DNA of 64,000 bases from an uncultured Pseudodesulfovibrio sp. (GTDB lineage: Bacteria > Desulfobacterota > Desulfovibrionia > Desulfovibrionales > Desulfovibrionaceae), in the NCBI RefSeq assembly GCF_963675635.1, contig NZ_OY776488.1, positions 1,277,501 through 1,341,500 of the forward strand, in the 5' to 3' direction. The notes beneath the pieces are model-generated. The model worked only from the letters and a program-made list of their open reading frames with translations, was not told where the DNA came from and made no database searches. Position 1 is the first letter of the stretch; every line of letters starts with the position of its first letter. Position numbers and translations under genes: made by a program. Shown here piece by piece: positions 35,082-49,984 of this stretch.

Positions 35082-37019
35082 CTACTCCTGCGCTTCCTGA
35101 ATTCGGGCTATTGCCTCCTCAGCGGCACTCACAAGCTCATACTCATCACTGTTGGTCACTTGCAACAAGGCAGAAAATGCCTTGGACCCGCCGATATTAC
35201 CCAAGGCTTCTATCGCCTTCATAACAACAAACCGATTGGAATCCTCCAGCATATCCACTATCAGCGGAACAGCCTCCTGCGATGAATGTTGACCCAGAGC
35301 ATCCATGGCGCGAATTATGACCCAATCATCTTCATCGTTCAAAGCATCAATAAGATGCGGAATGGTGTCTTCGCCATAATGCTGCCCAAGAATTTCAACA
35401 ACTGTCAGACGAACATCCTTGCTTTCATCATTAAGGCGCTGCAAGACCAACGGCAACCAAGCTCCCTTGTCGTCCGGAAATGCAGCAAGAGACTCAACCG
35501 CCACCCGCCGTATATCCGACTCCTCGTCTTCCACGGCATGCTGTAGAATAGCAAGATTGTCCGCAGAGCAAAATCTGCCCAAAGCATATACGGCCATGAG
35601 ACGATTTACCGGGTTCTCACTGGTGAACATCTCCCTGAAGCGATCCTGCACATCGGCAGTGCCGATGGCTATGCACGCTTCCAGGGCAGCCTCCTTCACA
35701 TCATCATATTGATGATCAAGCAATGGGAAAATATCATCCGCAACTTCGGCTAGTTGGAGCTTTTCACCAAGCAGGTACACGGCACTCTTCAAAACCGTAC
35801 CATCAGTATGCTCGTTCAACACCTTGATGAAAAAGTCTTTGGTCTGCGGTCGTCCTCTGTTAGCAACAACACTGACAATCTGCCGCTGCAAGGGGAGGCT
35901 GACTTGCCAAAACGCATCCATAAGCACCTGACAGATGTCATTCTGCTCAACACATTCTGTGGGTGCAATCTGTGACAGCACCTGAACCGCGACCTTTGCC
36001 ACCCCCTGGTCTTCACCAAGCAGGCCGACCTTGAGAGCCTCAGTCAGACCGATTTCAGCCAGGAAAGAAATAATGAGTTGCAACCGATCCTGATCCACAT
36101 CCTGATCCAAGGCCCCGGCAATCTGCAAAATACCTCTGGACGCTTCTTCTCCGCCGACATAGGCCAACCCCTGAATAGCAGCATCCTGGATTTCCACATC
36201 TTCATCCCGAAGCGCCACCAACAGGTACTGACGAAACCGCTCACGTTCATCGTCACTCAATAGAGTAAGCGATTTACCGCCGAGAATTTTAACCACGGCT
36301 TTCACGATTTTATTCCGCAACGCTGTAGGAGAATCACTCATACGTTTAAGCAGCATGGTCACGGCTTTGACGTTGCCCAATTCACCAAGCGCATCGATAA
36401 TCATAGAGGCAACAAGGTCCGAAGCGGAATCAAGCGCCTTGACCAGCGCATCCACCGAGCTGGCGTGTCCAATTTTCGTCAACGCCTCAATCACGGAATA
36501 TTGCACCCACTCTTCGTCGCCGATAGCCTGATTGAGACTGGGGATAGCCTCAGTCATACCCAACTCGCCAAGGCTGACTGCCGCCTGATACCGGACGTTA
36601 ACCTCGGGATCTTTAAGCAGGGCATTACACAATGGAGCAACGGCCAGAAGACTTTTGGTAGAACCAAGAATATCCGAAATGAAAATTCTGATATCCGCAT
36701 CCTCATCATGGATCAATTCCACCAGTGAAGAAAGGTCTTGGTTGCCCACTTCACGGAGAATATCCATGGCAAGATTACGGACGGGAGCATCGTCGGAACG
36801 CAGAAGAGGGATCACGGCCTGCACAACTTCCTTGCCGCCGATCTTACGCAGGGAACTATCCACGGCTTCCTGGATGCCAAGATGATTGGTCTGTAGCAAT
36901 TCGGCCAATTTGGGAACGGCTTCCACACAGTTGTTTTCACCTGCTTTGAAAGCACTCTCCCGGACAACCTCTTTATTTTCGCTCCCTAAAAGCACTATAT
37001 ATTCAGAGCATTCCACCAT
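35082..37019 (-). CDS. HEAT-repeat protein in the che operon
   Basis: This protein of about 645 residues is built almost wholly of HEAT-type repeats, each of about 31 residues with the pattern A..aLg.ig...av..Li..L.d.d..vR..a (for example AVSLGELGMTEAIPSLNQAI, then VEILGQHYGEDTIPHLIDAL). No enzymatic motif is visible. Such alpha-solenoids act as scaffolds. Its place between cheB and cheR suggests that it binds chemotaxis proteins or receptors. I chose ATG 37019 over 37046 because gggga lies about 8 bases before it; either is possible. Confidence 0.85.
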   Translation of the reverse strand: MVECSEYIVLLGSENKEVVRESAFKAGENNCVEAVPKLAELLQTNHLGIQEAVDSSLRKIGGKEVVQAVIPLLRSDDAPVRNLAMDILREVGNQDLSSLVELIHDEDADIRIFISDILGSTKSLLAVAPLCNALLKDPEVNVRYQAAVSLGELGMTEAIPSLNQAIGDEEWVQYSVIEALTKIGHASSVDALVKALDSASDLVASMIIDALGELGNVKAVTMLLKRMSDSPTALRNKIVKAVVKILGGKSLTLLSDDERERFRQYLLVALRDEDVEIQDAAIQGLAYVGGEEASRGILQIAGALDQDVDQDRLQLIISFLAEIGLTEALKVGLLGEDQGVAKVAVQVLSQIAPTECVEQNDICQVLMDAFWQVSLPLQRQIVSVVANRGRPQTKDFFIKVLNEHTDGTVLKSAVYLLGEKLQLAEVADDIFPLLDHQYDDVKEAALEACIAIGTADVQDRFREMFTSENPVNRLMAVYALGRFCSADNLAILQHAVEDEESDIRRVAVESLAAFPDDKGAWLPLVLQRLNDESKDVRLTVVEILGQHYGEDTIPHLIDALNDEDDWVIIRAMDALGQHSSQEAVPLIVDMLEDSNRFVVMKAIEALGNIGGSKAFSALLQVTNSDEYELVSAAEEAIARIQEAQE

Positions 37020-37063
37020 AATCTCAGTCCCCCATACAGGTTTCAAGACTCACTCATCAAAAC

Positions 37064-38107
37064 CTATTTATACAAATTAGCCATGATGGATTCTGCCATG
37101 TCGTCCAGATCAACAATCTCATCCGCCAGACTTTCATCGACAATGGCTTTAGGCATACCGTACACAACACACGTGGAGTCGCTCTGAGCCAAAGCGCGCC
37201 CTCCCCTTGCCTTGAGATCACGAATACCCTCGCATCCATCATTCCCCATACCTGTCAAAATAACGCCAAGTCCCCGTTTCCCAACAGCCGCTGCCACGGA
37301 ACTGATGAGAACGTTGGCTGATGGCTTATACAAAGCGTCACTGGGCTGGTCCGTAACAACCACATCAATGCGGCTGACCTTCTGGTCCAATACGATATGT
37401 CTACCACCAGGAGCCACATACGCATGCCCCGGTCGAAAGATGTCACCTGTTTCAGCTTCCTTAACAGTAATCTCACTGACGCCGTTAAGGCGCTCGGCAA
37501 AAGGACCGGTAAAAGCCGCAGGCATATGTTGCGCAATAACTATCCCAGCAGGAAAATCTGCCGGAAGCGAGGACAGAATTTTCTGAACGACAGGAGGACC
37601 GCCCGTGGAAACACCAATGGCTACGACATCTCGAACGGGACGCCCGTCTGCACGAGGTCGCACCCTGGGCGCAGGCTTTTTTCGAGCGGTCGGACGTGCC
37701 ACATGACGCATTTTACGCATGGCCACGGTTTTAACCCGCTCGATAAGATCCTTTTCAATCTTGATAATATCCAGAGAAACCTTGGAAAGCTGTTTGGGGA
37801 TAAAATCTACCGCACCAAGTTCCATGGCTTTCAAAGTGGCCTCTGCACCTTCAGTCGTCAGCGAGCTGACCATAAGCACAGGGCGGGGCGATTCCATCAT
37901 GATATGACGAAGGGCGGTCAGGCCGTCCATTTTCGGCATCTCGATATCCATGGTGACCACATCGGGATTCAGCTCACGCACCATATCCAGGCCTTCCTGA
38001 CCATTGCGCGCCACGCCGACCACGGTGATACCCGGGTCCTTGTCGAGCATCGTGCTGATGGCTTTTCTCATGAAAGCGGAATCATCCACGACGAGAACTT
38101 TAATCAC
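37064..38107 (-). CDS. cheB: Chemotaxis protein-glutamate methylesterase CheB
   Basis: This protein of about 347 residues has an N-terminal receiver domain (VLVVDDSAFMRKAI; VVTMDIEMPKMDGLTAL), a linker, and a C-terminal methylesterase domain with VAIGVSTGGPPVVQKIL, the His of VIAQHMPAAFTGPFAERL, and VILTGMGNDGCEGI. It removes receptor methyl groups and deamidates glutamines when phosphorylated by CheA. The GTG at 38107 is chosen because aaggag lies exactly 8 bases upstream, whereas the longer frame (38116) would overlap that site. It is the first gene of the che operon. Confidence 0.94.
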   Translation of the reverse strand: MIKVLVVDDSAFMRKAISTMLDKDPGITVVGVARNGQEGLDMVRELNPDVVTMDIEMPKMDGLTALRHIMMESPRPVLMVSSLTTEGAEATLKAMELGAVDFIPKQLSKVSLDIIKIEKDLIERVKTVAMRKMRHVARPTARKKPAPRVRPRADGRPVRDVVAIGVSTGGPPVVQKILSSLPADFPAGIVIAQHMPAAFTGPFAERLNGVSEITVKEAETGDIFRPGHAYVAPGGRHIVLDQKVSRIDVVVTDQPSDALYKPSANVLISSVAAAVGKRGLGVILTGMGNDGCEGIRDLKARGGRALAQSDSTCVVYGMPKAIVDESLADEIVDLDDMAESIMANLYK

Positions 38108-38311
38108 GTATACCACTCCTTAGCGTCTGCCCTGCCGACATCCGTTCGGCAGCAATTCCTGTCACCCGCCAACTCCCGACGCACGAGAATCATTTTGTCA
38201 TTCAATCTCCAATCTTAGGCAGCTTTATGCCCTTTGTCTACAACCTTGAAGAAACATGCAATTTTTACCTTGCCTTTTTGTCAGCGAAGAGCTAAATCCC
38301 TCTCTCGACAG

Positions 38312-38388
38312 CGGGATGTGGCTCAGTCTGGTAGAGCGCTGCGTTCGGGACGCAGAGATCGGAGGTTCAAATCCTCTCATCCCGACCA
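38312..38388 (+). tRNA. tRNA-Pro (anticodon CGG)
   Basis: A 77-nt cloverleaf: acceptor stem cgggatg / catcccg, anticodon stem ctgcg / cgcag with loop TTCGGGA and anticodon CGG at 38346-38348, T-arm ggaggttcaaatcctc, encoded CCA end. The 3' half is the attachment site of the integrated element: the same bases recur at 49842-49895 and, decayed, at about 52633. Confidence 0.97.
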
Positions 38389-38390
38389 GA
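38337..38390 (+). repeat. att direct repeat, left copy (tRNA-Pro 3' half)
   Basis: A 54-bp block identical to 49842-49895; one mismatch then 12 further matching bases follow on each side. It spans the tRNA anticodon arm to the CCA end. This is the classic site for tyrosine-recombinase integration, and the intact tRNA is preserved here. Confidence 0.93.
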
Positions 38391-38396
38391 AAAATC

Positions 38397-38431
38397 AAGG
38401 GTTTATGACAAATCGTCATAAACCCTTTTTT
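38397..38431 (+). terminator. Intrinsic terminator of tRNA-Pro
   Basis: A 13-bp stem (aagggtttatgac / gtcataaaccctt), loop aaatc, then a T-run right behind the tRNA. It lies inside the element. Confidence 0.85.
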
Positions 38432-38432
38432 G

Positions 38433-38455
38433 TTTTTGCTAACCTATTGCTAACA
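38433..38455 (+). repeat. 23-bp element-end repeat, left copy (possible integrase arm sites)
   Basis: An exact copy of 49686-49708. Each copy contains two direct TTGCTAAC-like octamers 4 bases apart. Pairs of short direct repeats inside both ends of an integrated element are typical of integrase arm-type or excisionase sites. The role is inferred. Confidence 0.6.
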
Positions 38456-38482
38456 ACAAGCTTGTTTTAAGCCTCTCCACAA

Positions 38483-39478
38483 TCAGTATGCTGACAGTGT
38501 AGCTTCGAGCTCTTTCTTCACTTCAGCCCGCAGTTCGGCTGGCCCGATCACTTCAGCATGAGAGCCTAAAGAAAGTATCCATTTGATTACTTCGTAGCGA
38601 CCAGACGTTTTCAACTCTACGATGACAGCACCATCAGGCTCTTCAGATGCGATCCGTTCATTGAAGTATGGACGCTCTTTGATATATTTAGCTTGATCTG
38701 CTGACACACGGACTATTGCTTCGATGGGATCACCGGCAATAAGGCCGAATGCTTCGTTAAGCCTTGCATCTGCATCAAAGTCTTTTGGTTCCTCAAACGT
38801 GTCGTCGGTCAGAGTTATCTCTTGAACTCTCTCAAGCGCGAGGATGAGGGCTTCGTCAAATGAGGGCATCCTGACAAAGAGATATATGCCGCCTGAGTAT
38901 TCAAAAAAGGACAACGGATCTATTTTTAATCTCGTTTCTTTGTCCTGGTTGAATGAGTAATAATTAACAAGGCAGGTCTTACGCTTGAGCATGGCTTCTA
39001 CCAATGAGTCGAGTATGGCCTCTTTCCCAGAGTAGTCTTTTGCGAATTTATCGGAAGAGCCGAACAAAGGCTCCAGCTTGCTCAATGAAGCGAACAACCC
39101 TTCCGGTACAAATGCATCAAGCCGTGAAAACAGACGATCGAGAGTCCTCTCAATTTCCGTTCCTTTAAAGAGTGTGGCCTGAGATCGCAAAAGCTGGAGT
39201 GCTACGATATCAGGAAGCGATATGGTGAAGTCCGGTAGATTTAATCCAGCTAGTTTTTGCCGAGAGGCCTCATCAATTTTCCACCTCTTGGAACGCTCAC
39301 CATAAACCTTGTCTTCATAGACCAACACACCAATCGCTTGAATGGTATCAAGCATACGGTAGGCAGCTTTTCGGTCCTTCCTTCCGAGCACTTCCATAAG
39401 TTCGTTGATTGTAGTGCCATTCACTTTGCTCAGGGCTTGAATACCCTTGAAAAGCTGGATTATCTGTGTTCCGCGCAT
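38483..39478 (-). CDS. WYL-domain transcriptional regulator
   Basis: This 331-residue protein has an N-terminal winged-helix region (about 5-70; TTINELMEVLGRKDRKAAYR), a WYL-type ligand-sensing domain (about 145-225; LVEAMLKRKTCLVNYYSF then RLKIDPLSFFEYSGGIYLFV) and a C-terminal extension. WYL regulators bind nucleic acid or nucleotide ligands and often control defence operons on mobile elements. It is the last gene of the five-gene operon (38483-42809), 15 bp after the beta-CASP-type gene. I infer that it regulates that operon, but no operator was identified. Confidence 0.85.
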   Translation of the reverse strand: MRGTQIIQLFKGIQALSKVNGTTINELMEVLGRKDRKAAYRMLDTIQAIGVLVYEDKVYGERSKRWKIDEASRQKLAGLNLPDFTISLPDIVALQLLRSQATLFKGTEIERTLDRLFSRLDAFVPEGLFASLSKLEPLFGSSDKFAKDYSGKEAILDSLVEAMLKRKTCLVNYYSFNQDKETRLKIDPLSFFEYSGGIYLFVRMPSFDEALILALERVQEITLTDDTFEEPKDFDADARLNEAFGLIAGDPIEAIVRVSADQAKYIKERPYFNERIASEEPDGAVIVELKTSGRYEVIKWILSLGSHAEVIGPAELRAEVKKELEATLSAY

Positions 39479-39493
39479 CTTTCCACCGTCTGG

Positions 39494-40747
39494 CTATAGT
39501 TCGAACGCTTCCCCATCATCCAGCACCTGGACATTGGAGAAGTGTTCTTCATAGTCATTTTTGTGCTCGGTATGGAGCGGGATAACCGTTTGAGGCTCGA
39601 CAGAATCAACAAAGCGTATCAAGTCTTCGCGCACAGCATGCCCACTGGTGTGGATCAGCTTGAATTTTGAGTTCTCACGTTTTTTCAAACTGGCCGCTTT
39701 TCCGTTGTAATGAGGAGTACCCTCTTCAAGATATCCGGCCCACTGAGAATAGATGATCGTTGAGGATGTCTCCGGGAGCTTGCCGAGAATGTCAGACAAC
39801 CAATGATCGCTCAACTTAATGAGATAGTTCGAAGGAGAATCAAGGATATCTTGCACCCAAAGCTCGTTCTCGGGTTTATACAAATCTCTGATGAAACTAC
39901 CAAAGAACTCAGCATGCTCTTTCACATTTCGATAGTAACCAGATGCAGGCCTATTGTGAGAGAGCACCTGTACACCTTCCCAGTTAATGTCAGGGATGCT
40001 GGTTGAAACCTGCTGAGCCAGCCTCAATATCCATGCTGTGTAAATGTCTACAACAAATGTTCTTCCAGACCTCTTGGCAGCTCGAAATGCAGAAACCATT
40101 CGATCGATATTCTGGGCTGAACAATTAAGACAGACTATCCCACTTTCCGTCTTGATAGCTTGGACAACCCCTTCTTCAACTTCGCTCTCACTGGAGAATT
40201 GGGAATTTCCTCGATGCATCATCGTACCTTCGAGAAGAAGAGCGTCCATTTTCTTCGGTAACTTGGTGCATAGATAATCAAAGGTCTTTGCCTTCCTGCC
40301 ATGAGCACGAAAATCACCCGTGTAATATATGGTCTTTCCTCCAGCTTCCAGCAAGAATCCAAAGGCATCAGGGGACGAGTGGTCAACCAAATATGGAGTG
40401 ACGGAAATATCTCCAACCTGGAAGGTCTTACCAGCCACCAGCGATGTTGGTTTATGCGCCAACAAGTCACCTTCCTTTGTGAAGAGCCTCAGACTTTGCA
40501 CGAACTGCCAAGCCACTTTCCCCATGTAAAGAGGAACACTCTCTGGCAACGTTTCGATCAGTCCATAGTGGTCCTGATGGCTATGCGAGATCAGCACGCC
40601 ATCATAAGATTCAATGTCAGCAGGAAGTGCAGCTAGGGAGTCATCAAGCGGCGTTCCGGCATCAAGTAGGAGGCGAGTGCCTTTGTGTTCAACTTCGACG
40701 CAACTGCCACCAATTTCGTTGGTGCCGCGGTGGATGGTTATTTGCAT
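39494..40747 (-). CDS. MBL-fold metallo-hydrolase, beta-CASP type (predicted nuclease)
   Basis: This 417-residue protein has an N-terminal metallo-beta-lactamase fold with the zinc motif HSHQDH (His55-His60), further metal ligands at VDHSSP and YYTGDFRAHG, and the beta-CASP-like motif phrases LLLEGTM, IHTSGHA and VIPLHTEH. This is the RNase J/CPSF-73 superfamily, which cuts RNA or DNA. It is about 135 residues shorter than RNase J and lacks the usual C-terminal domain. Its start overlaps the stop of the PD-(D/E)XK gene by 10 bp, so translation is coupled. Confidence 0.85.
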   Translation of the reverse strand: MQITIHRGTNEIGGSCVEVEHKGTRLLLDAGTPLDDSLAALPADIESYDGVLISHSHQDHYGLIETLPESVPLYMGKVAWQFVQSLRLFTKEGDLLAHKPTSLVAGKTFQVGDISVTPYLVDHSSPDAFGFLLEAGGKTIYYTGDFRAHGRKAKTFDYLCTKLPKKMDALLLEGTMMHRGNSQFSSESEVEEGVVQAIKTESGIVCLNCSAQNIDRMVSAFRAAKRSGRTFVVDIYTAWILRLAQQVSTSIPDINWEGVQVLSHNRPASGYYRNVKEHAEFFGSFIRDLYKPENELWVQDILDSPSNYLIKLSDHWLSDILGKLPETSSTIIYSQWAGYLEEGTPHYNGKAASLKKRENSKFKLIHTSGHAVREDLIRFVDSVEPQTVIPLHTEHKNDYEEHFSNVQVLDDGEAFEL

Positions 40748-41454
40748 ACTTTTCCCTCTTCATTGTCGATCATTTTTACCGCCTCAGTTAGCAGCCAAGC
40801 CAAATCATCCATCCCATTTTGGTAGTTCAAAAAGGCGTCTCTGCCGTCAATTAAATATACATTTTCCGCAGCCTCGCTCTCGCCTACCGGGCAGGCGCTT
40901 TGTTTGATCCAGACCCCATTACCTTTATCGAGACAAGGTTCCAACCATACATCATTTGTACGCACAGCTATATTCATGACGCTTGAGTCATCACTATCTC
41001 CGACAATGAGGATCGGCACCTCTGGAACAATATCTATAGGCTTATCGAAAGATATACCGAAAATTTCACCCATGGTGTCAGCCACATCACCATAGGCAGT
41101 AAGGATTTGGTCCTTTCTTTCCTCTAACTGCTGTCTATACCTGCCCACCTGACAAACAACCTTTGGCCCCTTGCTGTCTTTTGTGCAACGGATCCTATTG
41201 TCCTTTCTACGTTTGCCTTCAACAAAGAGAAGCCGTCTTTCTTTAGGAAGGAGGAAAACGAGGTCTATCTTGTCAGCTGCGCGTTCAGTCCCGTTTTTAT
41301 CCAAAGATGCAAAACGTGCTTCGATGTCGACAAGAAGCAAATCCGTTCGCTCCGCTGCTGCATATGAAAATGGCTTGAATACTTTGGAAAGCTGATAGCC
41401 TTCACGACTGTGAGACATTCCACGGTCCTGGCAATCATCCAGTAGGGAATCCAT
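40738..41454 (-). CDS. PD-(D/E)XK nuclease-like protein
   Basis: This 238-residue protein, counted from ATG 41454, has Asp64 (KIDLVFLL), Glu79-Gly-Lys81 (RLLFVEGKRRKDN) and a following Gln-containing helix (VCQVGRYRQQL). Together these form the core of a PD-(D/E)XK nuclease fold. No further domain is recognised. The start at 41454 is preferred because an aggtcaggga site lies before it and because it then begins 17 bp after the upstream gene; the longer frame (41544) would overlap that gene. Confidence 0.7.
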   Translation of the reverse strand: MDSLLDDCQDRGMSHSREGYQLSKVFKPFSYAAAERTDLLLVDIEARFASLDKNGTERAADKIDLVFLLPKERRLLFVEGKRRKDNRIRCTKDSKGPKVVCQVGRYRQQLEERKDQILTAYGDVADTMGEIFGISFDKPIDIVPEVPILIVGDSDDSSVMNIAVRTNDVWLEPCLDKGNGVWIKQSACPVGESEAAENVYLIDGRDAFLNYQNGMDDLAWLLTEAVKMIDNEEGKVCK

Positions 41455-41471
41455 AGATATTCCCTGACCTG

Positions 41472-41753
41472 TCAGTCTACTAGCATGAGGGAATCCGTTG
41501 AAAGACGCTTCCTTCCCTTTCGCTTTTTTTGCTCGTTCGTCCAAAAAATAGTCGTTGCTTTTAAAATATCACGGGTTCGTTTAAAAGCTCGCTGACCTCC
41601 AAAATAAAAGTCCATATTATTTTCTCGAATTGCAGGAAAGATTTCTCCTGCTAGAACTTTTCTGCGGATTTCATCAAAATTTGGATGGGCAGTGAACTGT
41701 TTAGCGTAAGGGAAAATACGTTTGAATTTTCGATAAATGCCTGTGTTAGCCAT
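41472..41753 (-). CDS. Small hypothetical protein in the candidate defence operon
   Basis: This 93-residue protein is basic and Phe/Arg/Lys-rich (YRKFKRIFPYAKQF; RAFKRTRDILKAT). It has no known motif. The ATG at 41753 has aaggaag 10 bases upstream. It sits between two nuclease-like genes. It could be a nucleic-acid-binding partner, or the N-terminal piece of a once longer PD-(D/E)XK protein, because the neighbouring frame continues just after its stop. Confidence 0.5.
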   Translation of the reverse strand: MANTGIYRKFKRIFPYAKQFTAHPNFDEIRRKVLAGEIFPAIRENNMDFYFGGQRAFKRTRDILKATTIFWTNEQKKRKGRKRLSTDSLMLVD

Positions 41754-41831
41754 GTGTATCCGACTTCCTTTATACATTTATTCCGATCGTTTTGTTTATG
41801 TCGCGTTGGATGGGTATTAACAGTACCCTCC

Positions 41832-42809
41832 TCATGTTAAGGATGTCTCGGTAATTTCGATCCCACCATTCTTTTCTTTGTAGAGCATATGGTGGAGATG
41901 GATTTCATCTTGTTCAATTGGAATGATGCGGTCATCGAATTTTGGAGTCTTTGCCCCATCGCCCATAAGAACGATACAGTTGAGCTTCAACTTCGCAGGC
42001 AATTCACCAGTATAGCCGAAAACTCTATACCATTCGGCTCCAGACTTACTTCTAAGCAACTCTCGAAGAAAGATTGTGTATGCGAGACCTTGCTCAATTG
42101 GTGCCTGTGGATTTGAAATATTAGGCTCTTTAAGTTCAAAAACTGAAAGAGTTGGACGCCCTGTTCCTACACGCGCAAGTATATCGATACCTCCTCCCGA
42201 TGTACTATATGCTAAGGAATCCTTTTCGCTCGCCTTTAATGGGGTTTTCATTTGAAATCTTGCGACATTGGCAATCTTTACGGGCTGCACCCCTGAAAAC
42301 GTACCTTGAAATTTTGATTCTTTATCCTTCTTCCCCATTTCCGAGAGAATCATGCACTCATATTTGTGCTCCAACTGCCTTGGCCTGCTGTCAGCACCCA
42401 GCATCGAGAAATGTTTTCTGAAGCCTGCCGCTTCCGCCCCACTCCAATTGACGTTCTTATGGGCACAGTCATAGTTGAACCATTCCATATTGCTATTAGT
42501 ATAATCGTTCGAGCCATGGGAAGTGCTGAGCAATACAGAATCCTTATTCACTTTAATCCCGGCAACATTTTGTCCCATATATCTTAATTGAAACGAGTTG
42601 GCAGATCCTTTTGCATCACCAGCAGTCGAGTATAGATAAAGTGGAGCCCACTCGTTAAAGGTAGACTTCTTAGCCTTGATCTTCTCAATATTGTTTTCGA
42701 TAGAAGAAGAATAACCAGCGTAGACATCTTCCCACTCGTTTTTTGCTTCTTTCAAAAGGGCAAGCGCCTGCTCTCTTACTTGATTGATCTTATCCATTTC
42801 AATGTTCAT
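41832..42809 (-). CDS. Predicted restriction endonuclease-like protein (PD-(D/E)XK)
   Basis: This 325-residue protein has a C-terminal nuclease-like core with Asp209 (GGGIDILARVGTG), Glu225-Leu-Lys227 (LSVFELKEPN) and a following helix (APIEQGLAYTIFLRELL), the arrangement of type II restriction enzymes. The N-terminal 200 residues are unrecognised. It has a strong aggag site and is the first gene of the operon, divergent from the DnaB-like gene across a 377-bp gap. No methylase gene is nearby, so a classical restriction-modification pair is not supported. Confidence 0.7.
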   Translation of the reverse strand: MNIEMDKINQVREQALALLKEAKNEWEDVYAGYSSSIENNIEKIKAKKSTFNEWAPLYLYSTAGDAKGSANSFQLRYMGQNVAGIKVNKDSVLLSTSHGSNDYTNSNMEWFNYDCAHKNVNWSGAEAAGFRKHFSMLGADSRPRQLEHKYECMILSEMGKKDKESKFQGTFSGVQPVKIANVARFQMKTPLKASEKDSLAYSTSGGGIDILARVGTGRPTLSVFELKEPNISNPQAPIEQGLAYTIFLRELLRSKSGAEWYRVFGYTGELPAKLKLNCIVLMGDGAKTPKFDDRIIPIEQDEIHLHHMLYKEKNGGIEITETSLT

Positions 42810-43186
42810 ACCATTCTCCTAAAAAACTCTTTCCAATGTTCATTACTGACTCCATCGGAAGTCAGCAGCAAACAGCATTCTTCTATAGCAAAACCGATTG
42901 GTATCAGAATTTAACTTAAAAGAACACTTTACAAATGAGGCTGCAATCGCATGAGGCAACCTTTTCAAAAGGATCTTTTCCGCGTCCTAAGGATGAAGCT
43001 ATTAATTCTTCATTGGCAATATCCATACATATTATACACACCAAGCGTGGCGTTTTTGGCCCCACATAAAAAACTATTTTGATGGGGCCAGAAACGCCCC
43101 ACTTGATTGCTAGCCTGTCGTTCAAAGGCTCAAGAAAATGTTCCCAAAACGAGCCATTCGCCTAAATCAGACAGGAGATACAAGCT
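42810..43186. promoter_or_regulatory. Divergent intergenic region of the island with inverted repeat
   Basis: AT-rich region between the nuclease operon and the DnaB-like gene. It must hold both promoters. An imperfect inverted repeat lies at 43047-43065 and 43083-43102 (gtgg-cgtttttggcccca against its mirror, 17-nt loop). A 69-codon frame at 42916-43125 is not convincing as a gene. Confidence 0.5.
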
Positions 43187-44548
43187 ATGCAGGATGACTT
43201 TGATGCCTTGGCCAATGAAAAGATTCCACCATTCGATTTGATTGCTGAACATGCAGTGCTTCAAGGAGTGCTGCTGCGCAATTCAGTCTTCCATGAAGTT
43301 GCTGATTTTTTAAATCAACAATCCTTTTACAGCCGCGACAATGGAAACATATTTACAGCAATGGAGACATGTTACGACAACTATGAACCGATCAACTCAC
43401 ACACTGTCCAGAATGCTCTAGAGGAGAGCAATCTAAACATCTGCCTCAGTAATTTTCTAGATCCACTCATCCCAGATGAAAGGGCATTGCCGCCTCACGA
43501 CATAGTAGAATACGCAAAAAAAGTCCGAGACAAAGCAACTCTCCGTGGACTTATTCTATTGGGCAACAAGATAGTAAACATAGCGTGTAACTCTCATGCT
43601 CCTCTGGTCGCGTTAGATGAAGCTGAAAAAGAAATATTTCTGATTAAGCAAAAATCAAAACAATTCAAAACCTCACCTGCAACGAAAGTCATAAACTCTG
43701 TTTTCGAAACTATTACGAATAAATACGAACAGAGAGATGAATTGTCTGGGCTCAAGACAGAATTCGAAGATTTGGACTCCCTGCTGACAGGTATACAAAA
43801 TGGAAACCTGATAGTTATCGCGGGGCGGCCTGGCAACTGCAAGCGAGCCCTAGCGCTGAATATACTTTTGAAAGTGGTACTGTCAGACATCCCTGCTGTT
43901 TGCTTTTCACTTGATACGCATCATGATCAAATAATGGAAAAACTGCTCGCGATAAATGCAGGGGTCTCGCTTATGAAGATCCGAACAGGGCAACTTGATG
44001 ATGAAGATTGGGAAGCCCTATACGATTCGGCCAACAGGATATCCAACAGCAGCTTGTTTTTTGACAGCACAACAGCCTTATCTCCATTGGAGATAGCCTC
44101 TCGCATAAAGCACATAAAAAAGGAACATGGCATCAGCCTTGTTGTGATCGACCGTATGCAGTTGATGAAGGTGAAAGAGAAACCGATAGATAACCCAGAA
44201 CTGGAAGCTGCCGAAATCTCTCATGCACTCAAACAATTGGCATCTGAATTGGACATTCCCATCATTGTCCTTTCGGAACTCGATCCGGAGGTAGATAAAC
44301 GAAAATACAACCAGCCAGAGTTATCAGACCTCCTTTACTACGGGGCCTATGAGCAGGCTGCGGATGCGATCATACTTACATACCGAGATGCCAAGTACTA
44401 CGAAGGCGATGAATCTAAGACGGATGGCGTAGATATTTACGTTGCAAAAAATCGTAATGGCCCTTGCGGCAAAGCTGAGTTGCTTTTCCATCGCAGCTCT
44501 CTGCGAATTCAAAACTTGGGTACTTTAGACCCTCTTTTCGATGGCTAA
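43187..44548 (+). CDS. DnaB-like protein with altered ATPase motifs
   Basis: This 453-residue protein has the replicative helicase layout: an N-terminal helical domain (about 15-115), a linker, and a RecA-like domain (about 190-450). The catalytic motifs differ from DnaB: Walker A reads GRPGNCKR (residues 213-220, Lys219 kept, the Gly before it and the following Thr lost), the catalytic-Glu motif reads SLD rather than SLE, and the SQLNR-like motif reads SELDPE. Walker B (VVIDRMQLM, Asp322) is kept. It may be a non-catalytic or dominant-negative partner of the replisome, or a loader for element replication. The function is inferred. Confidence 0.75.
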   Translation: MQDDFDALANEKIPPFDLIAEHAVLQGVLLRNSVFHEVADFLNQQSFYSRDNGNIFTAMETCYDNYEPINSHTVQNALEESNLNICLSNFLDPLIPDERALPPHDIVEYAKKVRDKATLRGLILLGNKIVNIACNSHAPLVALDEAEKEIFLIKQKSKQFKTSPATKVINSVFETITNKYEQRDELSGLKTEFEDLDSLLTGIQNGNLIVIAGRPGNCKRALALNILLKVVLSDIPAVCFSLDTHHDQIMEKLLAINAGVSLMKIRTGQLDDEDWEALYDSANRISNSSLFFDSTTALSPLEIASRIKHIKKEHGISLVVIDRMQLMKVKEKPIDNPELEAAEISHALKQLASELDIPIIVLSELDPEVDKRKYNQPELSDLLYYGAYEQAADAIILTYRDAKYYEGDESKTDGVDIYVAKNRNGPCGKAELLFHRSSLRIQNLGTLDPLFDG

Positions 44549-44606
44549 ATAATCATCCAGTGTATGGATTATTATACAAACCTTAAACAACATAAATGGA
44601 GAGATT

Positions 44607-45071
44607 ATGCGTAGACTGATGCTTACAATGATTCTGATCCTGTCGCTTTCAACAATCTGCTCTGCACAATCTTTTGTAGAGGACTTCAGAGGAGTTCCCT
44701 GGAATGTTACTTTCGAAGATTTCTCAGCTCAATTCCCAGTGGACATTAGCGCAACAGGTAACCCATACGCCGATACGACATGGTTCTACCTTAAAGGAGA
44801 AAACCATACCCTAGGAACTCTGCCGTTACGTAGGGTCGCATATGTTTTCAAAAGATTAGACCAGTATAAACGATTCAACGTAGGCCAATTAATTATAGAT
44901 TTTGAACACGAAGAGTCGATGATTCAAACCCTGAATAACATTCTTGAAGTGGACCATTTCGTCCACAAAACTGGTGAGTTAATTTGGAAAAACGAAGCAA
45001 CTAGAACTGCTGCAGTAGTTTCAAGGAGAAGCGAATACTACGTCGTTGATGTGTTTAAAATTAATAATTAA
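44607..45071 (+). CDS. Predicted periplasmic hypothetical protein
   Basis: This 154-residue protein begins with a clear Sec signal peptide (MRRLMLTMILILSLSTICSA, cleavage after about residue 20). The mature part is 134 residues with no known motif. It stands on its own 58 bp after the DnaB-like gene. Confidence 0.65.
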   Translation: MRRLMLTMILILSLSTICSAQSFVEDFRGVPWNVTFEDFSAQFPVDISATGNPYADTTWFYLKGENHTLGTLPLRRVAYVFKRLDQYKRFNVGQLIIDFEHEESMIQTLNNILEVDHFVHKTGELIWKNEATRTAAVVSRRSEYYVVDVFKINN

Positions 45072-45089
45072 GCATGTGGAGCTCCCCTT

Positions 45090-45986
45090 TTAGCGCCAGA
45101 ACTCTGGAAAGAGTTCTCGCATGCACTGTGCAACTTGATAAGAGGGGAGCCCCCAAAACTTTTCATCAGAATCGCCCCCGTTCTGCAAAAGGATGCTTAT
45201 CTCTTCTGGACTTCGCCCATCAAATCTCAAATATTGCTGAATCCTATCCGGAGTAGCCAGCATCTGCCCGTTGTTGTGAGCCGACATCGTATTTCTAGAC
45301 ACACTTCCACCGACTGCATGAGCACATTCTAGCTCTTTCAAGCCGGAAGTATCCAGCGCCCCAACAGCCGCTAGCTGAACCAGCCCTGCTTTATAGGCGG
45401 CTACGGATGAACGAATCCGCCCTCTCTGCTGTTCAAGCTTTGTTTTTAGTTCAATGTATCTTTGCTTTTCTTCAGACAAATCAGAGAAAGAAACACGACA
45501 ACCGCCGCTCTGCGTTGTAGTTTTCTCTTTATAATTCTCTTCTTTTGTCTCTTTGGGTGCATCATTCTGCGCGGGTGTTGAGCATGTCTTTGCATCTCTC
45601 GGCGCATCATCCTGCATGGTTACAGGGCATGATTCTGCATCCCCAGACGCACCATTTTGCACCCCTTCCTCAACCAAGGCTGGATGGAGGAGGAAGTAGT
45701 AGGCATTAGCTTTTGGCCCCAACTCGGATTCTATAAATCCTTCGGCCTTCAATTCTGCTAATAGATTCTGAGTTTGACGTTTTTTCAGCCCGACCTCTTG
45801 GGCAAGCGTGCCGACTGCCGGATATGCTCGACCATCTGCCCCAGCATATTGGGCCAGCCTTGCCCATACGAGCTTTGCACCGTGCGAGAGGCCGATATAG
45901 CGCATTAGGGTGTTCGGTATAACAGACACCCGCCTAAACTGCTTGTAGGGGCTGAAACGCTTTCCTATGCCATCTTGAGACTGCAT
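45090..45986 (-). CDS. Winged-helix replication-initiator-like protein
   Basis: The protein is about 298 residues from ATG 45986. The first 120 residues form a winged helix-turn-helix (IPNTLMRYIGLSHGAKLVWA; GTLAQEVGLKKRQTQNLLAE), common in plasmid and island replication proteins. This is followed by a low-complexity Asp/Pro/Ser/Thr linker with a coiled-coil and a short C-terminal helical domain. It lies after the excisionase-like gene. A role in element replication or transcription is inferred. Confidence 0.65.
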   Translation of the reverse strand: MQSQDGIGKRFSPYKQFRRVSVIPNTLMRYIGLSHGAKLVWARLAQYAGADGRAYPAVGTLAQEVGLKKRQTQNLLAELKAEGFIESELGPKANAYYFLLHPALVEEGVQNGASGDAESCPVTMQDDAPRDAKTCSTPAQNDAPKETKEENYKEKTTTQSGGCRVSFSDLSEEKQRYIELKTKLEQQRGRIRSSVAAYKAGLVQLAAVGALDTSGLKELECAHAVGGSVSRNTMSAHNNGQMLATPDRIQQYLRFDGRSPEEISILLQNGGDSDEKFWGLPSYQVAQCMRELFPEFWR

Positions 45987-45993
45987 GGCTGGC

Positions 45994-46197
45994 CTAGGAG
46001 TTGATTTCCATGGAATCGACGGTCTCGACGGTGTAGGCATTGGCGAATGCCTCAAGGTCTTTAATGTCATAGAAGACCCTGCGGCCGATCTTCTTATAGC
46101 GGGGGCCACGGCCATGGCAACGCCACACTTCGAGAGTTCCGGCACTCAAACCCAATATCTTTGCCGCGTCCTTAGTATCTACTCTGCTTATCGTCAT
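45994..46197 (-). CDS. AlpA-like excisionase / HTH protein
   Basis: This 67-residue protein is a MerR-type helix-turn-helix with the typical phrases TKDAAKILGLSAGTLEVWRC and RRVFYDIKDLEAFANAY. The ATG at 46197 is chosen for the aaagga site before it. Such proteins act as excisionases or element regulators. It sits 7 bp before the winged-helix gene on the same strand. Confidence 0.8.
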   Translation of the reverse strand: MTISRVDTKDAAKILGLSAGTLEVWRCHGRGPRYKKIGRRVFYDIKDLEAFANAYTVETVDSMEINS

Positions 46198-46321
46198 GAA
46201 AAAAATCCTTTGTTCAAGTGTATTAAAGCTGAACAAAGGATTTAAAGAGCAATCCGGCTGATTGTTAGAACGCTAAATTTCGTTAAACTCAATCGGATGC
46301 AAATTGGTAAAAAATTGCATC

Positions 46322-47245
46322 CTATCTCATATGCAGGACCTCGGCGGCATCGATGCATTTCACCGTATTTCGATACCACTTCCGAAACACGCTCTCCTCA
46401 GTTGCGGCATATCCCAGCTTGGCAACATCGTAATGTTCTTTCAAACTGTTGATAGCCTCAATCTGAGTTGCCCCAAAATTCGGACTCTCATCACTATGGA
46501 TGTAATCCCACAACCAAAGCCCAATGGCGCGTGGATTATCGGTTCCAATTTGAGTTGGAATTTTGGAATTCTTCTGAATCCCAATTTTCTCAATTTCCAG
46601 CATGTTGAATTCCAAATCCAAACCGTTTTCGTCTTTTCGAATTTCTTTATACATTTCAAGCTCTTTTTTTGTATTTCTAATTTGAGCTTGGATCTCAGAA
46701 ATCGGGCGATCAAAGTCAATTGCGACCAACGCATCGTATCCGAATATCGGAAAGCCCTCATAGTCGAGCGATTTAATCCCGTTTTCAACCTCACATTCGG
46801 CAACAAAGCGGATCACCTCCGACCTCTCGCGCGGCTCATTTGGACGGGATAAAGGTTCATCGTTTTCAATTGCGCTCAACATCTCACTCGCAGAGTATGT
46901 GCGGTTGGATCGTGGACCGGAGATTTTAAAACCAAATCTATGTCGCGCCGTAAGATATGATGAATACAAGATGTTAAACCGCTCATATTCCAAAGCGACC
47001 TTTTTCTTGGATTTTATGGTCACTTGCTCGGAAAACAATTCATGATCCACAAAAGCATCACCATCCGTCATGAACGGAGGAAAGCCCAATTCTCTAAAAT
47101 GGGTCTGAGTTCCTAAGAACAGCTTCTGCATCTCAAAGAATTCAGGATTTCTTCGAGTATATTCCCATGACCAGAAGCGATAAAAGCCCACATAGTTTAA
47201 GGTCTCAATTTCATCTGGGCTTAGTTCTCGGTTGAACTCATTCAC
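46322..47245 (-). CDS. Hypothetical island protein
   Basis: This 307-residue soluble protein has an N-terminal stretch WSWEYTRRNPEFFEMQKLFL that resembles the start of small regulatory-type island proteins. The remainder is charged and helical. I do not recognise a function. It is on the same strand as the integrase genes. Confidence 0.6.
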   Translation of the reverse strand: MNEFNRELSPDEIETLNYVGFYRFWSWEYTRRNPEFFEMQKLFLGTQTHFRELGFPPFMTDGDAFVDHELFSEQVTIKSKKKVALEYERFNILYSSYLTARHRFGFKISGPRSNRTYSASEMLSAIENDEPLSRPNEPRERSEVIRFVAECEVENGIKSLDYEGFPIFGYDALVAIDFDRPISEIQAQIRNTKKELEMYKEIRKDENGLDLEFNMLEIEKIGIQKNSKIPTQIGTDNPRAIGLWLWDYIHSDESPNFGATQIEAINSLKEHYDVAKLGYAATEESVFRKWYRNTVKCIDAAEVLHMR

Positions 47246-47277
47246 GGTTTATCCCCTGACGTCTTCCGACGCTTTTC

Positions 47278-47985
47278 TTAGTCTTTTTTCAATTCACCCA
47301 GTTCAAGCTGAGTGTCACGAACTGTTCGGAGAATTATATCCAAAATCCTAGTTAACTGAGTTGCTGCTTTTAACCATGCCACTTCTGCTGCTTTGTCTCC
47401 TGAAGCATACCCCCAAACGTTTGATTCCTGATGTTCGGCCACTATGGGCAAAATAAATGAAATCGGCTGTGAGCCTCTAAGGTCCTGTACTTCAAGATCT
47501 ACCCATGCAGCCCCATTCCACCACCCTTCAGTTTGGATAGATGCCGCCATAACAGATTGTTGCGATGACGCAGTAATCGCAACATCACTCCAAGGACCTA
47601 CGGCATGAGCTTGCGCTTCAGTCGTTGCTGTTAAGAATGCTGTGGAAGATACAATTCGGCTACCAAATGATGCGCCAAGATTAATAATCCTTAAGCGTAT
47701 TGTGACACGATTTGGAGTGACAGGGGAAAAGTAGTCCGACCATTGAATTGAAGAACCATATATTTTCTGAAGATCAGCTTTGATCTGAAAGGCTGTATTT
47801 GTTTGATCATTGGAAACCCTACCGTCAAAAACTGACAATAAGACTGGTGGGACTACTATCAGGTCAACTCGTTGGGTGCTGGATATTGTGGGATTGATAG
47901 ACCGACTTGTTGCGCAGCCACTGATGAGACAAACAGAGAACATCAATACGAAAACGATAAAACAACTTATCACAGACACCTCCAT
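47278..47985 (-). CDS. Predicted lipoprotein
   Basis: This 235-residue protein has an N-terminal signal segment ending in the lipobox LISGC (Cys24), so it is probably membrane-anchored in the periplasm or outer membrane. The mature part is beta-rich in appearance with no known motif. It lies in the element between an inverted repeat upstream (48013-48038) and the unknown gene downstream. Confidence 0.65.
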   Translation of the reverse strand: MEVSVISCFIVFVLMFSVCLISGCATSRSINPTISSTQRVDLIVVPPVLLSVFDGRVSNDQTNTAFQIKADLQKIYGSSIQWSDYFSPVTPNRVTIRLRIINLGASFGSRIVSSTAFLTATTEAQAHAVGPWSDVAITASSQQSVMAASIQTEGWWNGAAWVDLEVQDLRGSQPISFILPIVAEHQESNVWGYASGDKAAEVAWLKAATQLTRILDIILRTVRDTQLELGELKKD

Positions 47986-48012
47986 TGTATATCAAAACGC
48001 ATATACCTCAAC

Positions 48013-48038
48013 ATGTAGCACGTCAATTTATGCTACAT
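48013..48038. repeat. Inverted repeat upstream of the lipoprotein gene
   Basis: An 8-bp perfect inverted repeat (atgtagca / tgctacat) with a 10-nt spacer lies between the integrase stop and the lipoprotein start. It could be an operator or a weak terminator. Confidence 0.45.
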
Positions 48039-48053
48039 TCGGCTCTATTCAAT

Positions 48054-49202
48054 TTACTTTCCCATCAGCAACTCAGCAGCCCGATCACTGGCTTGTTTTT
48101 TGGTATCTGGCAGAAACTGCCCGTACCGCTTCGTCATGGATGAATCCTTGTGAGTCAGCAACTCCCCGATCATATCCAGTGAGAACTCGCCGGAGTTGGC
48201 AAGGGTCACGGCGAAATGGTGACGGAGGCCATGGAAGATTCTGAACTCCTTTGGGAGCTTCGCCTTTGTCTTAATTCGCTTCACTGCCGTGCATCCAGTT
48301 CGGAGCACCCCACCCTTTCCAGGGAAGATATACGGTGAATCTGGAAAATGCTCATTGCGCCATTGAATCTGAGTTGCAAGAACCTCTTTGGCCTTCCCGT
48401 TCATGGGTATTGAAACGGTCTTGCCACCTTTGGGAGAACGCAAGGTGATGAGGGATTGCTGAAAATCAACATCTCGATTCTCAAGTTTGAATATCTCTCC
48501 CCGACGCATTCCTGTGAACATGGCAAGTTCCAGCATCCGGCTCACGTCCTGGGCAGGCCATTCCTCAAGCACCTTCAAAAATCGCTTGAGTTGAGCAGGA
48601 GTGAGGTATTCGACCACTTCATTATCCCGCTTGGGCATCTGAATTGTAAATCCCAGAGGTTCACAGAGGCCATTCTTGACCCCAAAGTTGATAATCCTTC
48701 GGGTTATCTCCAAACCGCCCCAGATAGAGGCGGCAGACATTCCATCCATCTTCTTTTTGATCCGCTCCATGTCCAAAGGACTAAGCTTCTTCACGGGCCG
48801 AGAGCCAAGCACTGGGGCAACATGATTGTCATACCGCCCCTTGTCGATCTTCGCCCCCTTGGAAGCTTCGCCACGAATCTTAAAATATTCAGTGGCAATC
48901 TCACTCAAAAGGACATTGGCCTTACGATTCTCCTCACGAAGCTCTTTATGGGTTTTGACCTCCTCTCCATGCCGAGCCTTCTTGAGACGGTCAGAGCGAA
49001 GGTCTGCGGCAATCTGAGGGGTATATTTCTCAGACTTCCACCCTACCTTCTCCCATTTGAGCTTTCCGTCTAGGCGATAGGCAATGTGGTAGCAAACGTC
49101 GGGCTTGCCACGATACCGCTTGGCTTGGCTTTCATAATAGTAAACTCCTGGCCAACGCTTTTTGTTGACTAGCTGTTTTTGCCCTGTATTTCTTTTAACC
49201 AT
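48054..49202 (-). CDS. Tyrosine-type integrase of the tRNA-Pro element
   Basis: This 382-residue phage-type integrase has an N-terminal DUF4102-like region (about 10-75), a core-binding domain (about 100-200), and a catalytic domain with FTGMRRGEIFKLE, HGLRHHFAVTLANSGE, LLTHKDSSMTKRYGQF and the nucleophilic Tyr. It integrates into the tRNA-Pro gene, matching the 54-bp duplications at 38337 and 49842. It lies at the right end, about 640 bp from attR. Confidence 0.94.
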   Translation of the reverse strand: MVKRNTGQKQLVNKKRWPGVYYYESQAKRYRGKPDVCYHIAYRLDGKLKWEKVGWKSEKYTPQIAADLRSDRLKKARHGEEVKTHKELREENRKANVLLSEIATEYFKIRGEASKGAKIDKGRYDNHVAPVLGSRPVKKLSPLDMERIKKKMDGMSAASIWGGLEITRRIINFGVKNGLCEPLGFTIQMPKRDNEVVEYLTPAQLKRFLKVLEEWPAQDVSRMLELAMFTGMRRGEIFKLENRDVDFQQSLITLRSPKGGKTVSIPMNGKAKEVLATQIQWRNEHFPDSPYIFPGKGGVLRTGCTAVKRIKTKAKLPKEFRIFHGLRHHFAVTLANSGEFSLDMIGELLTHKDSSMTKRYGQFLPDTKKQASDRAAELLMGK

Positions 49203-49219
49203 CGAACTACCATCCGGTA

Positions 49220-49654
49220 TTAATCAACTTCTTTCCGAATAAAGGCACGCGGAGCATCCTCAATCGAATCACAATCTTCACAAAGACTGTCATAAAATTC
49301 TTTCTGACGTTGAAGATCTGCTTCAGTTGCGGGATTTCCAAGACAAGCGTCCTCAGGAAAATCTGACGGAATTCTGCCCTCTTTTTTCAATTCATGGACA
49401 CAAACATGAACCGTATTACGCATAATTCTAACTTGTTCTTCTCTTGAACATCTCCAACCACCTGCTATCGGACTACGATCATGATGTCTTTTCAGAATAA
49501 TTTGACAAACCTCTTCATATTCCTCTGGCCCCATACTAGAATTATTCTTCAAATATCCTTCTTTCAATTCTAACAAATGCGGATTTTGGACATACCAATC
49601 AGCCGCATGCCATGCGTCAATTTTAGCATCTAGCTCTTTCCAATTCTCAGGCAT
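49220..49654 (-). CDS. Hypothetical island protein
   Basis: This protein of about 144 residues, starting MPENWKELDAKIDAWHAADW, has several His and Cys residues (CEDCDSIEDA and RCSREEQ) but no recognised fold. The ATG at 49654 is preferred because ggagag lies 7 bases upstream. It is next to the integrase and on the same strand. Confidence 0.55.
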   Translation of the reverse strand: MPENWKELDAKIDAWHAADWYVQNPHLLELKEGYLKNNSSMGPEEYEEVCQIILKRHHDRSPIAGGWRCSREEQVRIMRNTVHVCVHELKKEGRIPSDFPEDACLGNPATEADLQRQKEFYDSLCEDCDSIEDAPRAFIRKEVD

Positions 49655-49685
49655 GATTAATCTCTCCAGCAATTATACGTACTCA

Positions 49686-49841: not shown

Positions 49842-49895
49842 CGCTGCGTTCGGGACGCAGAGATCGGAGGTTCAAATCCTCTCATCCCGACCAGA
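49842..49895 (+). repeat. att direct repeat, right copy
   Basis: A 54-bp perfect copy of 38337-38390, containing the tRNA-Pro anticodon arm to CCA without the 5' half, so it is not a functional tRNA. It marks the right end of the element. A terminator-like hairpin (49902-49936) follows, as in the intact tRNA. Confidence 0.93.
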
Positions 49896-49939
49896 TAAAT
49901 CAAGGGTTACAGGCATAAGCCTGTAACCCCTTTTTCTGT

Positions 49940-49960: not shown

Positions 49961-49984
49961 CGGTGGTATCTTTTTAATACTGTC

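What the first reader, a model, noticed from the sequence alone, without database searches (positions are those of the whole stretch)
38483..42809. Candidate undescribed defence operon: two PD-(D/E)XK nuclease-like proteins, a beta-CASP-like MBL hydrolase, a small basic protein and a WYL regulator
Five genes on one strand of a mobile element, tightly packed (two joints within 17 bp, one overlap of 10 bp, a 15-bp joint; the first joint is 78 bp). Asp209/Glu225/Lys227 in the first gene and Asp64/Glu79/Lys81 in the third fit two different PD-(D/E)XK cores. The fourth has HSHQDH plus beta-CASP-like motifs. WYL regulators commonly guard defence loci. Nuclease plus RNase J-like protein without a methylase is not a combination I know. 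Defence is inference.
Basis: partly seen in the sequence, partly recalled or inferred. Interest (0 to 1): 0.8.

Follow-up and report, generated by a model that had tools for sequence, protein, structure and literature searches.

The report
Two-nuclease gene pair, swappable partner
A small mobile element in a bacterium carries a widespread and apparently undescribed pair of genes, one for an RNase J-like enzyme and one for an interchangeable DNA-cutter-like enzyme, that may help the cell resist foreign genetic elements, although no function has been tested.

Summary
The five-gene reading is partly right. The recurring unit is a gene pair: a ~415-aa beta-CASP metallo-beta-lactamase (RNase J-like, 39494-40747) and a PD-(D/E)XK-type protein. 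A partner lies beside the MBL gene in 79 of 101 loci (70 without the three weakest partner families) and in 14 of 19 loci of a second search. Searching by nuclease, 3 of 3 P1 and 5 of 5 strong P3 hits, own locus included, lie beside an MBL gene or fragment. Catalytic MBL residues: kept in 97 of 97. Partner families change 28 times on a quick MBL tree; one probable fusion exists. The "small basic protein" is the N-terminal part of the third protein, split by a frame change here. Of 101 loci only this one carries both P1 and P3. All lies in an 11.5-kb tRNA-Pro element. P1, P2, P3 and MBL match no PADLOC family; P1-P3 no Pfam or NCBIfam model credibly. Nine paper searches found no description. 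Defence is inference: defence-gene neighbours exceed a small control; WYL enrichment is only suggestive.

The parts
41832..42809 (-). P1, 325 aa, PD-(D/E)XK-type protein (D209, E225, K227, Q240, Y244)
   Evidence: relatives lie beside the MBL gene
41472..41777 (-). P2, 101 aa: N-terminal part of the P3-family protein, in another frame
40738..41544 (-). P3, ORF of 268 aa with the PD-(D/E)XK core (E48, D94, E109, K111)
   Evidence: model of the relative L094
41472..41544 (-). overlap of the P2 and P3 frames (P3 lies -1 to P2), with an A7G run that reads A_AAA_AAG in the P2 frame
39494..40747 (-). MBL, 417 aa beta-CASP metallo-beta-lactamase (H55 H57 D59 H60, H123, D145, E173, H370, H392); overlaps P3 by 10 bp
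38483..39478 (-). WYL + WCX transcription regulator, 331 aa
38397..38427 (-). terminator-like hairpin (14 pairs, found on both strands) after the WYL gene; pattern match only (4 found, 3.7 expected)
38312..38388 (+). tRNA-Pro(CGG), attachment gene
38337..38403 (+). left att copy (67 nt)
49842..49908 (+). right att copy, 99% identical
48054..49202 (-). tyrosine integrase of the element
45994..46236 (-). excisionase-like small protein
   Evidence: phrog_66, 1.9e-7
45090..46145 (-). replication-initiation-like HTH protein
43187..44548 (+). DnaB-like helicase, divergent from P1

Best explanation
This is one copy of a widespread, patchily distributed two-protein module. A constant beta-CASP metallo-hydrolase, of the type that usually acts on RNA, is encoded next to one of several interchangeable PD-(D/E)XK proteins. 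My mechanism: the two form a complex. The PD-(D/E)XK subunit sets the target and cuts foreign DNA. The beta-CASP subunit degrades the transcripts or freed 5' ends of the same invader. The WYL protein, where present, sets expression. The module protects the cell, or the element that carries it, from phages or other elements. Shown by sequence: the gene pair, its catalytic residues, the partner changes, a probable fusion, the mobile setting of this copy. Inferred: complex formation, substrates, defence. In this window the P3-type partner is split by a frame change and a P1-type partner lies upstream, so P1 may be the working partner. My odds that the pair is a functional unit are about 0.9; that it is defence about 0.55 (lowered from 0.6 on checking, because the WYL enrichment rests on a biased probe and a small control); the figure below is for the whole statement.
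For: Adjacency: 79 of 101 loci, window included; 63 of 73 directly neighbouring partners overlap the MBL gene or lie within 20 bp; 81 of 83 labelled partners are on its strand. 14 of 19 loci of a second profile search, 12 without the weak family c6. From the nuclease side: P1 3 of 3 and strong P3 5 of 5 beside an MBL gene or fragment, own locus included; three further P3-profile hits in two genomes (two in one, one in another) also lie beside or within 0.4 kb of an MBL gene. Probable fusion L086. Catalytic residues 97 of 97. Motif C is His, as in RNA-acting beta-CASP enzymes (passage of PMC3095777). Six partner families change 28 times and gene order 9 times on the MBL tree. Phylum labels change 28 times for 17 phyla (least 16); Bacteroidota 7 rows, 7 changes. 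Element ends. PADLOC at 1e-20: 42 families among 140 neighbours against 6 among 140 control ORFs. WYL: 11 of 100 loci against 0 of 18 control stretches with the window's WYL protein as probe.
Against: No function was tested. 22 of 101 loci have no recognised partner, some of them cut by contig ends. Partner families c6, c12 and s6 match the core by profile with probability under 10% only; without them the count is 70 of 101. Partner families are single-linkage clusters. The tree is a quick one (42 of 94 inner branches starred), and 28 partner changes compare with a shuffled mean of 33.5, so part of the count may be tree error; starred branches alone force 12 changes for P3 and 6 for P1. Foldseek rows are mostly PD-(D/E)XK enzymes by my recall of the names, but none is significant (best E 0.16 and 0.049). 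The Val-to-His change at motif C of SNM1A did not alter substrate choice (PMC7458816 passage). The control for defence neighbours is small and chromosomal while the test set includes plasmids; the wider WYL count (20 hits, 19 of 100 loci) used a profile built from these very loci, and by length only about 2.5 hits would be expected in the control for the fair probe. No close relative in the phage collection. The window's P3 frame is broken.
Confidence: 0.47

Rival explanations
1. The pair is a nucleic-acid repair or RNA-turnover accessory with no defence role: the PD-(D/E)XK protein nicks damaged DNA or RNA:DNA hybrids and the beta-CASP enzyme trims 5' ends.
For: Closest solved relatives of the MBL are EF2904 and RNase J; P1 of L077 is fused to a DEDDh exonuclease; two loci have a metallophosphoesterase gene next to the MBL gene.
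Against: Very patchy: P1 in 1 of 98 near relatives, the MBL family in 18 of 297 genomes of the class. Partner changes and defence-gene neighbours are unusual for housekeeping.
Confidence: 0.25
2. Toxin-antitoxin-like abortive infection: the PD-(D/E)XK protein is the harmful part and the MBL protein restrains it, or degrades a signal or RNA that activates it.
For: Tight coupling of the genes and a mobile setting; one constant and one variable partner.
Against: The MBL protein keeps every catalytic residue (97 of 97); order is not fixed (37 down, 35 up); both proteins are enzyme-sized.
Confidence: 0.15
3. In this window the copy is decaying: the third gene is a frame-broken pseudogene and the locus is a relic. 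(Not exclusive of the other readings.)
For: P2 and P3 are two frames of one family; the 28 relatives aligned with P3 are single ORFs (chosen as ORFs), though another relative, the one at L063, has an in-frame stop; A7 run in the overlap.
Against: P1 and MBL keep their catalytic residues and P1, MBL and WYL are full-length; the frame change could be a sequence error or programmed.
Confidence: 0.3
4. The P2/P3 overlap is a programmed -1 frameshift that makes the full-length nuclease in small amounts.
For: A_AAA_AAG in the P2 frame, and the P3 frame lies -1.
Against: Predicted downstream hairpin is weak (z -1.45; 21 of 200 shuffles as stable) and starts inside the run. None of the aligned relatives has such an overlap. 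Indels in A runs leave such heptamers anyway.
Confidence: 0.12

Closest known systems
RNase J / EF2904-type beta-CASP hydrolases
   Same: beta-CASP fold and all motifs; best solved matches 2az4 (EF2904) 8.2e-37, then RNase J
   Different: 417 aa against about 555 for RNase J chains; scores 74 bits against the TIGR00649 cut-off of 400; coupled to a PD-(D/E)XK gene. A second relative in the same genome, a 555-aa open frame, matches at 24% and is probably the host's RNase J (inference)
Type VII CRISPR-Cas (Cas14, beta-CASP)
   Same: a beta-CASP nuclease in a system against mobile elements (PMC10910872, passages)
   Different: Cas14 model 25.9 bits against 800; no Cas5/Cas7 among the proteins scanned; no array-like family among the 20 of 35 repeat families shown for 36000-53000
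MBL nuclease + trypsin-like protease pairs of AVAST, Hachiman, Lamassu, DRT (HamM and kin)
   Same: an MBL-fold nuclease gene next to a second enzyme, acquired repeatedly (PMC12799240, passages)
   Different: those MBL proteins are described as resembling DNA-uptake nucleases and are paired with a protease; here a beta-CASP enzyme is paired with PD-(D/E)XK
Shedu (SduA)
   Same: PD-(D/E)XK nuclease domain; 2 of 29 P3-family members match SduA_C weakly (best 2.2e-4); 8ti9 among the non-significant Foldseek rows
   Different: no PADLOC or Pfam Shedu match for the window's P1 or P3; two-gene unit with MBL

Membership tests
beta-CASP metallo-beta-lactamase superfamily | motifs 1-4 plus A (E), B (H), C (H/V) | tested here: met
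   97 of 97 sequences keep D29, H55, H57, D59, H60, H123, D145, E173, H370, H392. Motif letters follow PMC7458816 and PMC3095777 passages; the mapping to this protein is mine. Most loci were fetched by motif 2 or motif 4 patterns, so those two motifs are partly fixed by the search.
RNase J family | TIGR00649 curated score and full length | tested here: not met
   74 bits against 400; 417 aa
PD-(D/E)XK superfamily (P1) | D ... E-x-K on the core strands, flanked by helices | tested here: met
   D209, E225, K227 invariant in 10 of 10; model pLDDT 87.8, strands 200-207, 210-214, 220-227, helix 235-252. The motif and fold rule is recalled.
PD-(D/E)XK superfamily (P3 family) | D ... E-x-K on the core strands, flanked by helices | tested here: met
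   invariant E117, D158, E173, K175 in 29 of 29 rows; model of L094, not of the window's P3, pLDDT 91.7, strands 136-145, 155-163, 168-176, helices 116-127 and 189-203
PD-(D/E)XK superfamily | significant match to a solved member | tested here: inconclusive
   Foldseek rows are mostly such enzymes by my recall (McrC, Can2, MUS81, HamA, Shedu, HincII, Exo5), with unrelated rows among them; best E 0.16 and 0.049; no sequence match in the PDB
Shedu | SduA_C domain | tested here: not met
   no match for window P1 or P3
Type VII CRISPR-Cas | Cas14 score; Cas5/Cas7; array | tested here: not met
   25.9 bits against 800; none of the 10 proteins scanned is Cas5/Cas7; no dedicated array search was run
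MBL-protease pair (HamM type) | trypsin-like protease encoded next to the MBL gene | tested here: not met
   no protease domain in the neighbouring window proteins scanned
Restriction-modification | methyltransferase in the unit | tested here: not met
   none among the 10 window proteins scanned; three small element ORFs were scanned against PHROGs only
Anti-phage defence system | protects against phage | not testable with these tools
   no experiment

The most novel reading that the evidence does not exclude
An undescribed dual-nuclease immune system found in at least 17 phyla: one constant beta-CASP RNA-acting enzyme onto which unrelated PD-(D/E)XK DNA nucleases are swapped again and again, so that one machine destroys both the genome and the transcripts of an invader while its target range changes by cassette exchange. 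The window would be a snapshot of such an exchange, with a P1-type partner beside a broken P3-type one.
Probability: 0.25. Interest if true: 0.85.

Novelty: new variant of a known kind. Interest (0 to 1): 0.65.

Why it matters
Two enzyme families with no library name turn out to share one constant neighbour across many bacterial phyla and one archaeal bin. If the pair is immune, it would add an RNA-type beta-CASP nuclease as a core part of a defence system outside CRISPR and give a clean case of effector-nuclease swapping. It also gives a precise, cheap test: two genes, known catalytic residues, many natural variants.

Tried and rejected
Five-gene conserved system: rejected, only nuclease + MBL recurs. 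P2 as a separate small basic protein: rejected. P1 in near relatives: 1 of 98 genomes, own only. Single-sequence scans for P1 in genome contigs and for P3 in viral contigs found no relative; plasmid tblastn with P1 and P3 found nothing. A direct P1-P3 profile comparison gave only probability 29%, E 6e-4, over the core, so common descent of P1 and P3 beyond the fold is not claimed. Three weak P3 hits (N-terminal part only; L127-L129) had no MBL neighbour within about 1.5 kb. One P1 neighbour (G482) has only a 67-aa MBL fragment, and G321's second locus a 196-aa MBL ORF. A P3-profile hit in the genome of L057 first looked like one away from MBL; fetching it showed a second MBL gene about 0.4 kb off. 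Programmed frameshifting: weak support. WYL enrichment: with an unbiased probe 11 hits in 1331 kb against 0 in 306 kb, which the small control cannot settle. Phage collection: 14 records, all distant. Rows dropped: 5 MBL ORFs of odd length and duplicate loci before the 97-row counts; for the neighbour scans 140 of 148 test and 140 of 143 control ORFs were used. Papers: ten searches as listings, nine of them on this question and one on motif C; passages only of PMC12799240, PMC13092281, PMC7458816, PMC3095777, PMC10910872; word look-ups without a hit in PMC4012209 and PMC9523054.
Full report
What is there. On the minus strand of 38483-42809 lie P1 (41832-42809, 325 aa), two overlapping ORFs P2 (41472-41777) and P3 (40738-41544), the MBL gene (39494-40747) and a WYL gene (38483-39478). 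P1, P2 and P3 have no credible match in Pfam, NCBIfam or PADLOC (best Pfam E 0.27, 0.037 and 0.11). The MBL protein matches Lactamase_B_2 (1.4e-15) and RMMBL (7.4e-7) and is closest to EF2904 and RNase J among solved structures. The regulator matches WCX and WYL above the cut-offs.

Where it sits. tRNA-Pro(CGG) is at 38312-38388. A 67-nt stretch that begins in it recurs at 49842-49908 with one mismatch. Between the two copies lie an integrase, an excisionase-like protein, a replication-initiation-like protein and a DnaB-like helicase, so this is an integrative element of about 11.5 kb; the candidate genes lie at its tRNA end. All 36 same-genus genomes searched match this att region, as expected for part of a tRNA gene; several, such as G025, G033, G034 and G035, have three copies within about 30 to 85 kb.

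The conserved unit is a pair. Iterated profiles found 12 P1-like and 37 P3-like ORFs among all ORFs of these loci, window included and a few loci redundant. After clustering the neighbours and comparing clusters by hhalign, 79 of 101 non-redundant loci, window included, have an ORF within 700 bp that belongs to a PD-(D/E)XK-like family: P3 38, P1 13, c3 12, c6 6, c8 3, c10 3, c12 2, s6 1, s8 1. 63 of 73 directly neighbouring partners overlap the MBL gene or lie within 20 bp. 76 of the 83 labelled partners carry a D...[ED]xK pattern (P1 10 of 15), against 43 of 194 other neighbours of like size and a mean of 18.5 of 83 for shuffled partners. Families c6, c12 and s6 match the core by profile with probability under 10% only; without them the count is 70 of 101. 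22 loci have no recognised partner.

Tests from other directions. A search of 395 phylum genomes with the P1 profile gave 3 genomes, own included: two with the MBL gene alongside and one with a 67-aa fragment of it. The P3 profile gave 8, own included; the 5 strong ones are beside an MBL gene (one a 196-aa ORF), the 3 weak ones, which match the N-terminal part only, are not. Among 20 genomes chosen for having an MBL locus, three P3-profile hits lay elsewhere: two in a Bradyrhizobium genome, directly beside further MBL genes, and one about 0.4 kb from a second MBL gene in the genome of L057. A profile search of 297 class genomes with the MBL alignment (up to six candidates scored per genome), not drawn by the motif patterns, gave 18 genomes; of 19 loci other than the window's, 14 have a recognised partner alongside, 12 without c6. 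Two of the 14 are close copies (L150, L151), and two of the five misses are cut by contig ends.

The nucleases. P1: D209, E225, K227, Q240, Y244 invariant in 10 of 10. P3 family: E117, D158, E173, K175, Y197 (L094 numbering) invariant in 29 of 29. AlphaFold2 models are confident (P1 87.8; the relative L094 91.7) and place these residues on or beside the expected strands and helices. The Foldseek rows are mostly PD-(D/E)XK enzymes by my recall of the names, with unrelated ones among them, and no row is significant; sequence profiles find no solved relative. P1 and P3 profiles align only over the core. P1 of L077 is fused to a DEDDh exonuclease; L106 has MBL fused to an AAA ATPase; L086 has MBL followed in the same ORF by a domain with VDIVTLNRRGNLSVIELK and a downstream Q/Y, aligned to the P1 core (probability 32%).

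The MBL protein. 97 of 97 full-length relatives keep every beta-CASP catalytic residue, including His at motif C. A paper passage takes this His as the mark of RNA-acting members (PMC3095777); another reports that exchanging the corresponding residue in SNM1A did not change substrate choice (PMC7458816), so the substrate is open.

Partner changes and spread. On a quick maximum-likelihood tree of the 97 MBL proteins (short search, 42 of 94 inner branches starred), six partner families on 72 rows (window left out) need 28 changes (5 would be least possible; shuffled mean 33.5, as low in 0 of 200); starred branches alone force 12 for P3 and 6 for P1. The up/down order needs 9, of which 5 are forced. 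74 rows carry a phylum name, 17 phyla in all; they need 28 changes (least 16; shuffled mean 46.7). Bins may hold foreign contigs. The window's MBL has its highest identity (43%) to a P1-type locus (L031), and its nearest rows by path are mixed P1, P3 and c8; no starred clade holds it.

The split third gene. P2 aligns to model positions 31-63 and P3 to 144-276 of the P3-family profile built without the window (14.8 and 65.1 bits; best of 1000 P2 shuffles 6.3). The 28 relatives aligned with P3 are single ORFs (they were chosen as ORFs); one further relative, at L063, has an in-frame stop. The P3 frame lies -1 to P2, and the overlap holds A_AAA_AAG in phase, but the RNA structure after it is unremarkable (z -1.45). 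A broken gene, a sequence error and programmed frameshifting all remain possible.

Defence context. With PADLOC at 1e-20, 140 neighbour ORFs matched 42 families (25 shown, 23 of them by one protein each, several models often hitting what may be one protein; some, such as DEDDh and Cas12f, are broad) and 140 control ORFs 6 families (between 3 and 7 proteins). WYL genes: with the window's WYL protein as probe, 11 hits in 1331 kb (11 of 100 loci) against 0 in 306 kb of 18 control stretches, where about 2.5 would be expected. With a profile 20 hits against 0, but that profile was built from these loci. The controls are chromosomal stretches of some of the same genomes, so a mobile-element bias is not excluded. 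This is suggestive, no more.

Verdict. That they work together I hold at about 0.9; that they defend, at about 0.55. The mechanism (DNA cut by a swappable nuclease, RNA or end degradation by a constant beta-CASP enzyme) is inference. That it is not in print rests on nine searches of one open library only.

Noticed in passing
window 38337-38403, 49842-49908, 52634-52700; other same-genus genomes: tRNA-Pro looks like an insertion hotspot: the att half-site recurs at kb to tens-of-kb spacing in several same-genus genomes, and a third, 82% copy plus a second repeat (49928-49988 / 52720-52780) lies beyond the right end.
   Followed up: partly
L086:7980-10259, L106:4656-7649, L077:9298-10866: Natural fusions: MBL with a probable PD-(D/E)XK domain, MBL with an AAA ATPase, P1-type nuclease with a DEDDh exonuclease.
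   Followed up: partly
L016:9215-9859 and L020:9455-10024: A metallophosphoesterase gene overlaps the end of the MBL gene in a Cereibacter and a Prevotella plasmid.
   Followed up: no
L067, L130, L131 (one Bradyrhizobium genome): Three separate MBL loci in one genome, two with P3-type partners and one with a c6-type partner.
   Followed up: partly
L057 and L169 (one genome): A second MBL gene, with a P3-profile hit about 0.4 kb away, lies some 6 kb from the MBL gene of L057.
   Followed up: partly
L024:9205-11163: MBL with a C-terminal extension like that of L086 that stops just before the nuclease motif; the next ORF carries the D...ExK pattern, so this fusion may be frame-broken.
   Followed up: no
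L127-L129: The N-terminal part of the P3 family occurs without an MBL neighbour within about 1.5 kb in three genomes.
   Followed up: no
window 46322-47245 and 47278-47985: Two element genes with no credible family match (the second was scanned against PHROGs only).
   Followed up: no
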